From: Acidobacteriaceae bacterium KBS 83 | Lineage (GTDB): Bacteria > Acidobacteriota > Terriglobia > Terriglobales > Acidobacteriaceae | Assembly (NCBI GenBank): GCA_000381585.1 | Contig: KB906738.1 | Span: forward strand, 310,001 to 374,000 | Direction of reading: 5' to 3' | DNA: 64,000 nt | Made by a program: the position numbers and the translations under genes | Shown: piece by piece, positions 39,871 through 48,375 of the stretch | Layout: the number at the start of each line of letters is the position of its first letter | Position numbering within the stretch: position 1 is the first letter of the stretch | Notes under the pieces: model-generated | What the model saw: only the letters and a program-made list of their open reading frames with translations | Database searches by the model: none | Told to the model about the DNA's origin: nothing

Positions 39871-41625
<1,755 letters not shown>

Positions 41626-45344: not shown

Positions 45345-45989
45345 GTTGGCGAACCTGAGATGCGGTCCGGGCGAATCGCCTTGGCGATTGTGTCTTGATT
45401 ACCGGCGAACCGGAAGTAGCTCTGAATTGACGCCTCCAGGCCAATGCGCTCATTGAGCTCTGGTTGAGCTTCGCTCCAGGGTTTCCTATCGCGAGAAACC
45501 GCTCTTATCAGAAGCAAACGTGGCACCCATTTCGGGAACGGATCACCAATCACACATCAAAAACCTGCCAATTAATTCCATCCAATTCGCTACACTAAAA
45601 ATAGGGACCAACTCCGGCCACAACCCGCAAGATCCAAAAAACGCCACCTTTACCGTGCCATTTCCTGATCGTCCGATAGGACACTGCTCTAGAGGCAGCT
45701 TTTCCGTTAAGAAAAGCTGCTCATAATTGCAGCCCGGCGAATCAACCTAGGGAAATGGAACGGCGACGGTGGCGTTTTTCATTTGTAACCGGCGTTGGTC
45801 CGTGTCCCGCGATTGCTAACTCCAATCGCTGGACATATTTACAGCTAAGTCCTTTAGGAAGACATTTTTATGCTCCGTACACCCCATATCCTTTACATTC
45901 GATTGCTGTTGTACCGTGCCCTCCCGCACCGGAGGGGGGGATACGGGTCACATCACCAACCCGCGTCACGAACTCAGGAGACGACTCAG
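45345..45989. other. 645-bp intergenic region
   Basis: I see no supported gene here. The middle (about 45545-45650) is more AT-rich than its surroundings. The right end holds an AGGAG (45976-45980) nine bases before an ATG at 45990. Confidence 0.4.
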
Positions 45990-46767
45990 ATGTATCCGGA
46001 ATGTCGACATGTTTTGGCCAAGCGGTGAGGGCTGCCGCGCAGCTGCCCTCCAGGGCAGTCACTGGTGCTACTTCCACGCGCGCATGCACTCCCGCCAAGC
46101 GCAACGCCACGCCGAGCGCGACCTGCTCCAGTCCATCCGCCGCGAGACCGCGCGCCGCCAGCACCGCCAACTCAACGGTCGCTTCGCGCCTGCCCTCGCC
46201 ATTCCATCGCATCCCAGCCTGGACGCACGGCCGGGCCAGTCACCCCATCCCCAAACCCTCACGGAGTTGTCATCGCGACCAGAACGAAGCGAAGTCGGGG
46301 GATCTGCCTTGGGCCTTGCCACTGAGACTGGCACAGACGAGACCGGCACGGAAACATATGACTACGGGGCCTTCCCCGTCGACAGCGACCACCGCGAGCA
46401 GCTCAATGCGCACGGGAGTGCGTCCGCCGAGGCAGCATCGCTCGATCTTCCGCCCATCGAGGACACCGCGTCCATCCAGCTCGCCCTCATCGAGGTCCTG
46501 CAGGCGCTGGCCGCGAATCAGCTCGACACCAAACGCGCCGGCCTTCTCCTCTACGGCCTGCAGGTCGCCTCGGCCAATGCGAAGCACTGCAAAATCCCGA
46601 GCCACGGCGTCCGCTTCATCACCCACACCGACGACGGCATCCCCCTCGCCCCGCAGGAATACGGCTACGATCTCGAAGACATAGAAGAAGAGATCCGCCG
46701 CGACGAAGAAGGAGAGGATGAAGAAGTCGACGAAGAGTTGGAAGAGAACAATAGCGAAGAGAAATAA
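45990..46767 (+). CDS. Hypothetical protein with Cys/His N-terminus, apparently frameshifted near its start
   Basis: The main frame runs GEGCRAAALQGSHWCYFHAR at the N-terminus, then a Ser/Pro-rich middle, the helical block SIQLALIEVLQALAANQLDTKRAGLLLYGLQVASANAK, and a long acidic tail. This architecture recurs in acidobacterial hypothetical proteins. A good ribosome site and ATG at 45990 give MYPECRHVLA in another frame, which meets a stop at 46026. Deleting one A at 46020/46021 would join MYPECRHVLA to SGEGCRAAAL. As written, translation could begin at an internal ATG (46009). The middle contains a RPERSE segment encoded by a dispersed repeat. Confidence 0.7.
46262..46296 (+). repeat. Dispersed repeat-derived segment inside a coding region
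   Basis: GTCATCGCGACCAGAACGAA followed by GCGAAGTCGGGGG encodes RPERSEVGG and matches the 'HPERS' repeats found between genes elsewhere. It suggests a repeat inserted in frame into the gene. Confidence 0.5.
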
Positions 46768-46875: not shown

Positions 46876-48375
46876 TCAACGCTTACAAATATCAGCGTAG
46901 GCCTGATTGATCGCCTGCGCTCTTCGCTTCGCAAGCTGCTGAAGCTCATCGCCGAGGTGAGCCACCTTATCCGGATGATATTTGGAGATTTCCCGATGGT
47001 ATGCATTTCGGATTTCGATCGAACTGGCACCCAGTGCAACGCCCAGAATAGAAAAGGGATCTGAAGAACTGATGAATCCATACTCCCATTCATTTGATCG
47101 CGCATCGTCGGCTTCGACACGAGCGGAATATCTCCGGTCAATCCAGCGCACGAGATCTTGGCCAGAGATTAGGGAGATCGGCTTGCCTCGTGCGAATGCA
47201 CGAGCGTTGACGCTAAAATCGGCCGTGGTCACGATGAACCCGTGTCGAGCGTCAGCGTGCATCATTGCCCCATAGAAATCGTGCACTACGGGAGATCGTA
47301 TGTCGCTCTTCCACCGCATGCACTGAACAACATCGGTAGACGTGGACATTTTGATAATGAGGTCTATGCCATCGTCTCCAGAACGGCCGCGCCGTTGCAC
47401 TTCATAACCATCGTCTCGAAATAGAGATTCGATCAGTTCTTCGAATTCGCTGCCCGTAAGCTTATGGAGTCCTTCTATAGTTCGCAGTCGTCCCCGTCTC
47501 TCCCTCTCTTCTCGTTGCCTGCGTTGTATCTCTGCTTCTCGCGACCCCTCCTCGGTTTCTTTGTGCTCATGTGCTATTTCAGCCTGTTTCCGGGCTGCGC
47601 GATCCGCTTCATTCTGTTTGTGAAGGCAGGATGAGCAGAGTGCGCCGGTCGAATCAGCCACAGCTTGGCAACGAACGCACTTTCTCTTGCGTCGAAGGAC
47701 TTTGCCGAGGCTTAGGAGAAAGACTACAAAAGCTCCGCGCAATAGCCAGGGAACACCTTCTCGCCCCGTTTCTGAATTGCTTGACGGTGCGGTAGAGCCT
47801 GTCCGCCAACCGTCGTACGAACCCGTCGCCAGTGGCTGTACCCCCTCTGGCGATTTTTCGGGTTGAGTTTGTTTAGGAGACGTATAGCGGGGTAACGTCT
47901 TCCCCTTGACCGGACCAGCTGACGACAGCGGGTCCGGCGACGAGAGAGATCGATCACGAACAACATCGCCTGATCGAAGATTGGTATCCGTTCTAAGAGA
48001 AATTGGCCTTTTTAGCCGATCTTGCAAGCACCGATCATACGCAGCTGGCCCGGAAAACAACTTCTCGACGGAACAGGCGGACTCGATGGAACGCCGCTCC
48101 TCAGCATTGAAGACGGAGAGATCCGGTGCTTTCGGTCCACGGGACCAGTCTTCGAGTTTCCCCTGCAGACACCGATCATAGGCAGCGGGTCCATAAAGCA
48201 GCTTCGTCCTTGAGCAGGCCGACTCGATGGACAGCTGCTCCTCAGCATTTAGGACGGAGAGATCCGGCCTAACCTGCGGATGAGCTGGAATTGCCGTCAG
48301 GAGCAAGCACACCGCAACTCCCAGTCTTCGGCTCCCCCTCGATATTTCTGGCCCAAAGAATGTGAGATATTCCAT
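46876..48375 (-). CDS. Membrane-anchored Mrr-nuclease-like/J-domain fusion protein
   Basis: A 499-residue multidomain protein. In order: a signal-like hydrophobic segment (17-31); two 34-residue repeats (about 39-72 and 85-118) of the form LSVxNAEExxSIESAC...GPAAYDRCL; a polar linker; a membrane helix (211-226); a zinc ribbon (Cys233, 236, 247, 250); a charged coiled coil (253-297); an Mrr-type nuclease domain (about 302-418) with FEELIESLF, GDDGIDL (Asp338) and VVQCMRW (351-355); and a J domain (439-499) with HPD at 467-469. The expected catalytic QxK reads Gln-Cys-Met, so cleavage is doubtful. Repeats should face the periplasm, the rest the cytoplasm. Confidence 0.85.
   Translation of the reverse strand: MEYLTFFGPEISRGSRRLGVAVCLLLTAIPAHPQVRPDLSVLNAEEQLSIESACSRTKLLYGPAAYDRCLQGKLEDWSRGPKAPDLSVFNAEERRSIESACSVEKLFSGPAAYDRCLQDRLKRPISLRTDTNLRSGDVVRDRSLSSPDPLSSAGPVKGKTLPRYTSPKQTQPEKSPEGVQPLATGSYDGWRTGSTAPSSNSETGREGVPWLLRGAFVVFLLSLGKVLRRKRKCVRCQAVADSTGALCSSCLHKQNEADRAARKQAEIAHEHKETEEGSREAEIQRRQREERERRGRLRTIEGLHKLTGSEFEELIESLFRDDGYEVQRRGRSGDDGIDLIIKMSTSTDVVQCMRWKSDIRSPVVHDFYGAMMHADARHGFIVTTADFSVNARAFARGKPISLISGQDLVRWIDRRYSARVEADDARSNEWEYGFISSSDPFSILGVALGASSIEIRNAYHREISKYHPDKVAHLGDELQQLAKRRAQAINQAYADICKR
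48040..48265 (-). repeat. Internal duplication encoding two 34-residue repeats
   Basis: Two tandem stretches of the gene encode LSVLNAEEQLSIESACSRTK...YGPAAYDRCLQ and LSVFNAEERRSIESACSVEK...SGPAAYDRCLQ, with clear DNA-level similarity (for example GGACTCGATGGA-type segments on the plus strand at both sites). The period is about 138 bp. Confidence 0.75.

What the first reader, a model, noticed from the sequence alone, without database searches (positions are those of the whole stretch)
46876..48375. Membrane-anchored Mrr-like nuclease fused to a J domain, with the catalytic lysine lost
Seen directly: a signal-like segment, two 34-residue repeats with conserved Cys pairs, a membrane helix, a four-Cys zinc ribbon, a coiled coil, an Mrr-like domain and a C-terminal HPD-containing J domain in one 499-residue frame. 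Known: Mrr-type enzymes use Asp and Q/ExK; J domains stimulate Hsp70 ATPase. Here the motif is Gln-Cys-Met (codon ATG where AAG would be expected). Inference: the domain may bind DNA at the membrane without cutting it and recruit DnaK there, or it may sense envelope state through the periplasmic repeats. I know of no system with this exact order.
Basis: partly seen in the sequence, partly recalled or inferred. Interest (0 to 1): 0.88.

Follow-up and report, generated by a model that had tools for sequence, protein, structure and literature searches.

The report
Membrane Mrr nuclease with J domain
A bacterium carries a rare one-piece membrane protein that joins cysteine repeats, probably facing the cell wall, to an inside part made of a DNA-nuclease fold and a chaperone-recruiting J domain; its closest intact relative keeps the catalytic lysine that this copy has lost.

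Summary
Window 46876-48375 (minus strand) encodes 499 residues in the stated order, with Mrr_cat (E 9.8e-30) and an HPD J domain (E 5.2e-8) over their cut-offs; structure comparison confirms the Mrr fold (AF1548 Z 13.2, AspBHI 12.0, MspJI 11.6). The lysine is really Met353. But an intact orthologue (G328, 47% identical) has the same order, four repeats and QCK. Of 43 Mrr domains compared, 41 have Lys; the other two are this copy (Met) and a broken remnant (Pro). Loss is thus a private change of this copy, whose other 13 most conserved Mrr positions are kept. In my samples the fusion is rare: two intact copies and one remnant. Relatives without Mrr (repeats-membrane-ribbon-J) show that the nuclease part is optional. 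G328's copy sits in plasmid-like DNA. Best reading: an envelope-anchored DNA-guard or defence protein with a DnaK-recruiting tail, catalytically dead or impaired here. No function is shown.

The parts
46876..48375 (-). whole gene, 499 residues plus stop (P0001)
   Evidence: only Mrr_cat match found in its own genome at E 0.001
48274..48375 (-). signal-like N-terminus, residues 1-34
   Evidence: sequence; helix 15-27 in the model at low confidence; cleavage not tested
48148..48267 (-). CX14C repeat 1, residues 37-76
   Evidence: helices 44-61 and 63-78
48007..48126 (-). CX14C repeat 2, residues 84-123
   Evidence: helices 91-108 and 110-122
47695..47757 (-). single membrane helix, residues 207-227, then RRKRK
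   Evidence: hydropathy; helix 210-232
47626..47679 (-). four-Cys ribbon C233, C236, C247, C250
   Evidence: Cys conserved in P0002 and P0003; CxxC pairs also read by eye in L057 and L094
47479..47625 (-). charged coil, residues 251-299
   Evidence: helix 248-297 in the model
47140..47469 (-). Mrr_cat domain, residues 303-412
   Evidence: Pfam PF04471 E 9.8e-30; fold match to AF1548, AspBHI, MspJI
47317..47319 (-). Met353 codon ATG at the catalytic lysine position
46894..47061 (-). J domain, residues 439-494
   Evidence: Pfam PF00226 E 5.2e-8, over cut-off; its first part is poorly modelled (pLDDT 44-56)
46969..46977 (-). HPD motif, residues 467-469
   Evidence: sequence

Best explanation
A type-I membrane protein of the Mrr/PD-(D/E)XK kind that guards or watches DNA at the inner membrane. 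Shown: the domain anatomy, the Mrr fold, the intact HPD, an orthologue with a complete active-site signature in plasmid-like DNA, and a broken remnant in a third genome. Inferred: (1) the CX14C repeats are periplasmic helical hairpins, perhaps disulphide-locked, that touch or read the envelope or wall; (2) the ribbon, coil and Mrr domain lie in the cytoplasm and engage DNA near the membrane, such as entering phage or plasmid DNA; (3) the J domain recruits DnaK to assemble, remodel or release the complex; (4) in G328 the Mrr domain can cut, while in the window's copy K353M abolishes or strongly lowers cutting and leaves a DNA-binding or assembly role.
For: Mrr_cat and DnaJ over curated cut-offs. 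Orthologue with the same order and E-D-QxK complete. Fold match. 13 of the 14 most conserved Mrr columns kept, only K353 changed. The coil+Mrr stretch matches PADLOC models PDC-S02 (E 3.2e-16), ZorD (6.9e-13) and mREase_IV (8.2e-13). The G328 copy lies with RepA_C, TrbI, an integrase-HNH fusion, TnsA, QueC-like and Ogg-HhH genes; the G439 remnant lies about 1.7 kb from a frame that looks like a tyrosine recombinase (identified by eye only). Repeats share a polypeptide with a peptidoglycan-binding domain in an Aeromonas plasmid protein.
Against: No activity, binding, localisation or defence phenotype is known. Of six neighbouring window frames scanned, four had Pfam matches over cut-off, all ordinary (STAS, DUF899, HAD, metallophosphatase), and two had none. 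PADLOC models have no curated cut-off here; of eight G328 neighbours only the QueC-like and integrase-HNH proteins matched PADLOC models, the latter through its HNH part. Loss of the lysine argues against a nuclease role in this strain. The wall-reading role of the repeats rests on one co-occurrence.
Confidence: 0.45

Rival explanations
1. Early decay of a mobile defence gene: K353M is a first inactivating change in a gene that has lost its use, and nothing positive follows from it.
For: A third copy (G439) is already a broken remnant with Pro at the same site. Third-position GC is 0.52 against 0.72-0.85 for three neighbours, consistent with foreign origin. The fusion is very rare in the samples searched.
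Against: Frame intact over 499 codons; Cys pairs, ribbon, HPD and 13 of 14 conserved Mrr columns kept; one neighbour (HAD) has equally low third-position GC, 0.53.
Confidence: 0.25
2. The Mrr domain is still an active nuclease, with a neighbouring basic residue (R354 or K356) or another lysine standing in.
For: Asp, Gln and helix-A Glu are kept. Migration of the lysine and a PD-EXQ site are described for the superfamily (PMC1189080, passages).
Against: Leaving out the window and the G439 remnant, all 41 Mrr domains with a letter at this column have Lys, including G328, which also has R354 and K356.
Confidence: 0.12
3. Primarily a membrane J-protein: repeats-membrane-ribbon-J is the basic machine, delivering DnaK under an envelope signal, and the Mrr insert only tethers it to DNA.
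For: Relatives without Mrr keep repeats, membrane helix, ribbon and J: P0003, L057, L094. J domain 66% identical between window and G328.
Against: In L057 and L094 the HPD His is replaced (DPD, SPD), so the J activity itself is not constant. The Mrr domain is as conserved as J between the two fusions.
Confidence: 0.15

Closest known systems
Mrr_cat restriction endonucleases (PF04471), AF1548, MspJI, AspBHI
   Same: fold and D-QxK-type signature; Mrr_cat 103.5 bits, Z 11.6-13.2
   Different: membrane-anchored, with CX14C repeats and a C-terminal J domain; Met in place of Lys in this copy
Membrane-anchored PD-(D/E)XK proteins: RmuC, COG4741 (PMC1189080, passages)
   Same: membrane helix, coil in RmuC, and a predicted nuclease domain (cytosolic by prediction in COG4741, tabulated as a membrane-associated guard against foreign DNA)
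   Different: no periplasmic repeat region, ribbon or J domain described in the passages read
Zorya (PMC11890865, passages)
   Same: a membrane part whose presumed wall-binding domain is needed for defence works with a nuclease; ZorD is reported to carry a Mrr-like domain
   Different: Zorya uses a ZorAB motor and separate proteins; this is one chain without motor domains
Repeats-membrane-ribbon-J proteins found here (P0003, L057, L094)
   Same: the whole plan but the Mrr domain
   Different: no nuclease domain; HPD lost in L057 and L094
NA-iREase1 (PF22722)
   Same: REase fold described as inactive; 41.8 bits against a cut-off of 27
   Different: Mrr_cat scores far higher (103.5); the lysine-bearing G328 orthologue matches it as well (40.2 bits); no NACHT domain in the protein

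Membership tests
Mrr_cat (PF04471) | score over curated cut-off across the whole domain | tested here: met
   103.5 bits against 21, profile 1-115 of 115
Mrr_cat (PF04471) | PD-(D/E)XK fold of the Mrr type | tested here: met
   AlphaFold helix-strand order and Z 13.2, 12.0, 11.6 to AF1548, AspBHI, MspJI; the block 331-340 with D338 is modelled at pLDDT 61 only
Mrr_cat (PF04471) | Glu, Asp and Q/E of the active-site signature | tested here: met
   E312, D338, Q351; that these are catalytic is recalled
Mrr_cat (PF04471) | catalytic lysine of QxK | tested here: not met
   Met353, codon ATG; the G328 orthologue has Lys. So: homologous Mrr domain, not claimed as an active Mrr nuclease
Mrr-type restriction enzyme | cleaves (modified) DNA in a metal-dependent way | not testable with these tools
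   needs protein
J-domain proteins (PF00226) | score over cut-off and HPD motif | tested here: met
   33.3 bits against 27.8; H467 P468 D469
J-domain proteins (PF00226) | stimulates Hsp70 ATPase | not testable with these tools
   needs assay
NA-iREase1 (PF22722) | attached to a NACHT protein (from the family's name) | tested here: not met
   over the model's cut-off (41.8 against 27), but no NACHT model among the protein's Pfam matches up to E 1
Zinc ribbon | model score over cut-off | tested here: inconclusive
   four Cys in two CxxC pairs conserved in relatives, but DZR_2 11.6 bits against 27
Zorya | ZorA and ZorB motor genes beside the nuclease | not tested
   the window's other frames were not scanned with defence models; only the protein itself was

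The most novel reading that the evidence does not exclude
In the window's strain the nuclease has been turned into a non-cutting DNA tether: a single-chain, envelope-spanning co-chaperone that couples the wall or redox state of periplasmic cysteine hairpins to DnaK recruitment on DNA held at the membrane.
Probability: 0.15. Interest if true: 0.75.

Novelty: new variant of a known kind. Interest (0 to 1): 0.45.

Why it matters
If real, it puts envelope sensing, a nuclease fold and Hsp70 recruitment on one polypeptide, a compact alternative to multi-protein membrane defence such as Zorya. The natural pair (Lys in G328, Met here) gives a direct way to separate DNA cutting from DNA holding. It also points to a small periplasmic CX14C repeat that recurs in several membrane proteins and had no Pfam match over cut-off in the proteins scanned.

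Tried and rejected
Two genome-contig scans matched 24 and 36 stretches by pattern and confirmed none as a relative. Viral contigs gave six loci matching only within residues 289-414, the Mrr part, none and one further Mrr relative. Plasmids: 223 records for P0001 and 529 for P0002, with 0 covering 80% of the query; I saw the best 40 rows of each. Repeats alone hit 1 record. Phages: 15 records, 0 covering 80%. Rfam and tRNA scans of the window were empty. PDB sequence search: all 45 matches lie on residues 431-496, the J domain, best E 1.2e-4, so the Mrr part has no PDB match by this search; the repeat profile gave one weak match, E 0.25. The repeat model (pLDDT 84) had no Foldseek match at E 0.001 and no VIA Z of 5 or more among 31 chains; this does not show a new fold. 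The viral structure library gave mainly restriction-endonuclease entries at its top, 13 at E 0.001. A synteny test failed: the neighbouring HAD protein was found at E 1e-40 in 1 of 21 genomes, its own. An assembly error at the Met codon cannot be excluded without reads.

Limits of the counts: searches scored only 3 candidates per genome, up to 16, eighteen and five; one search missed the window's own gene, so absences are weak. Samples overlap. Most matches (136 of 399 genomes; 14 of 80; 25 of 398) are partial, to the Mrr domain, the repeats or the J domain alone. I read full frames only for loci that were fetched. The 43 Mrr domains come from loci returned as best matches to my queries, not a random draw; one row of 44, a partial second match in L004, has a gap at the column and was dropped; identical domains were collapsed.

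Literature: searches were aimed at a Mrr-J fusion or inactive Mrr domains; others returned nothing, 13 two papers, 90 and 91 forty-eight each, of which ten each were listed. None seen describes a Mrr-J fusion; this covers only this open library and these words. Searches looked for Zorya and PDC-S02. All others were seen as search listings only.

Full report
What is there. The minus-strand frame 46876-48375 encodes 499 residues. Pfam gives Mrr_cat at 303-412 (E 9.8e-30, 103.5 bits, cut-off 21) and DnaJ at 439-494 (E 5.2e-8, 33.3 bits, cut-off 27.8). Two 104-nt direct repeats 141 nt apart, 79% identical, encode CX14C units on a 47-residue period. One hydrophobic helix (208-226) is followed by RRKRK, then CxxC-x10-CxxC, then a long charged helix. 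The protein is the only Mrr_cat match in its 6.25-Mb genome and one of four J-domain matches, at E 0.001.

Structure. AlphaFold on P0001 with five viral Mrr segments gave mean pLDDT 70. By blocks of ten, the repeats are at 78-90 and the Mrr region at 80-96, except 331-340, which holds D338, at 61; the ribbon is at 57-70, the linker 124-205 is under 50, and the J domain runs from 44 at its start to 84. Structure comparison places residues 298-423 with AF1548 (Z 13.2, rmsd 2.6, 108 residues), AspBHI (12.0, 3.1, 121) and MspJI (11.6, 3.4, 124); Foldseek agrees. Lower rows include RPB5, recalled as a non-catalytic relative of this fold. The J domain rests on sequence, not on this model. The repeats model as helical hairpins without a convincing PDB match.

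The lysine. Position 353 is ATG, Met. A full-length orthologue in genome G328 (same family, other genus by the tool's labels) has 618 residues, the same order and four repeats, and reads VVQCKRWK with codon AAA. In an alignment of 44 distinct Mrr rows, 43 have a letter there: 41 Lys, one Met (the window), one Pro (a remnant in G439). Of 14 columns at least 85% conserved in the other 41 domains, the window differs only at 353. Between window and G328 the Mrr and J domains are each 66% identical, the repeats 58 and 67%, the coil 49%, the ribbon 36%, the membrane helix 20% and the linker 15%. So the fusion was catalytically complete in signature, and the window copy has lost one presumably essential residue while the rest of the domain is kept.

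Distribution. With the whole protein or the two-row profile, intact fusions were found only in G000 and G328: 399 class genomes, 2 of the own genus, 80 of G328's genus, 398 of the family; samples overlap and only three candidates per genome were scored. G439 holds a remnant: an Mrr piece and a J piece in different frames. Other collections gave no full-length member. The single-repeat profile matched 3 of 396 phylum genomes at E 1e-4; the Mrr-less profile 2 of 396 at E 1e-15.

Relatives and modularity. P0003 (G146) is three repeats, membrane helix, ribbon and J with no Mrr. L057 (G671) and L094 (G678) have the same plan, with DPD and SPD instead of HPD (read by eye). Other proteins put a J domain first, then a membrane helix, then repeats (L009, L024, L031, L079). 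An Aeromonas caviae plasmid protein has a membrane helix, PG_binding_1 and four repeats. Hydrophobic segments plus Mrr without J also occur (L004, L007, L008, L020; read by eye). The fusion therefore looks like a coil+Mrr cassette placed between ribbon and J of an existing membrane J-protein, or the reverse; no tree was made.

Context. The window gene stands alone between frames on the other strand; of six neighbouring frames scanned, four gave ordinary Pfam matches and two none. Its third-position GC is 0.52 against 0.85, 0.72 and 0.79 for GroEL, the metallophosphatase and DUF899, but a neighbouring HAD gene has 0.53. The G328 copy lies in an 18-kb stretch with RepA_C, TrbI, a Phage_integrase-HNH fusion, TnsA, a QueC-like protein, a PfkB/nucleoside deoxyribosyltransferase protein and Ogg-HhH, that is plasmid-like mobile DNA. 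The coil+Mrr region matches candidate-defence models.

How it most likely works. The repeats face the periplasm and the nuclease-J half faces the cytoplasm (positive-inside rule; inference). The Mrr domain engages DNA at the membrane; G328's can probably cut, the window's probably cannot, or only weakly. The J domain probably brings DnaK to build up or clear the complex. [quoted passage not shown] Zorya, in which the presumed wall-binding domain of ZorB is needed for defence and ZorD is reported to have a Mrr-like domain (PMC11890865). PMC7159879 passages mention Mrr-like effectors and, separately, DnaJ-fused proteins in other conflict systems.

Verdict. New variant of a known kind; interest 0.45. 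Names of these genomes are withheld by the tools; I recall this gene content as Acidobacteriota-like, which no call confirms.

Noticed in passing
L060 15277-16569 (G328): Tyrosine integrase fused to an HNH nuclease domain in one frame (Phage_integrase E 1.8e-13, HNH E 3.7e-8).
   Followed up: partly
L060 11372-14655 (G328): Cluster of PfkB/nucleoside deoxyribosyltransferase, QueC-like, weakly nitroreductase-like and Ogg-HhH genes in plasmid-like DNA, possibly a base-modification or defence cassette.
   Followed up: no
L064 590-5645 (Aeromonas caviae plasmid NZ_AP026371.1): AAA ATPase gene followed by a membrane protein with PG_binding_1 and four CX14C repeats, then a 640-residue protein without a Pfam match over cut-off.
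   Followed up: partly
L057 1111-2319 and L094: J domains of these Mrr-less relatives have DPD or SPD in place of HPD.
   Followed up: no
45916-46767: Unassigned plus-strand frame with CRAAALQGSHWCYFHAR near its start and a very acidic tail; no Pfam match over cut-off.
   Followed up: no
39919-41598: 559-codon open frame antisense to GroEL, probably a high-GC artefact.
   Followed up: no
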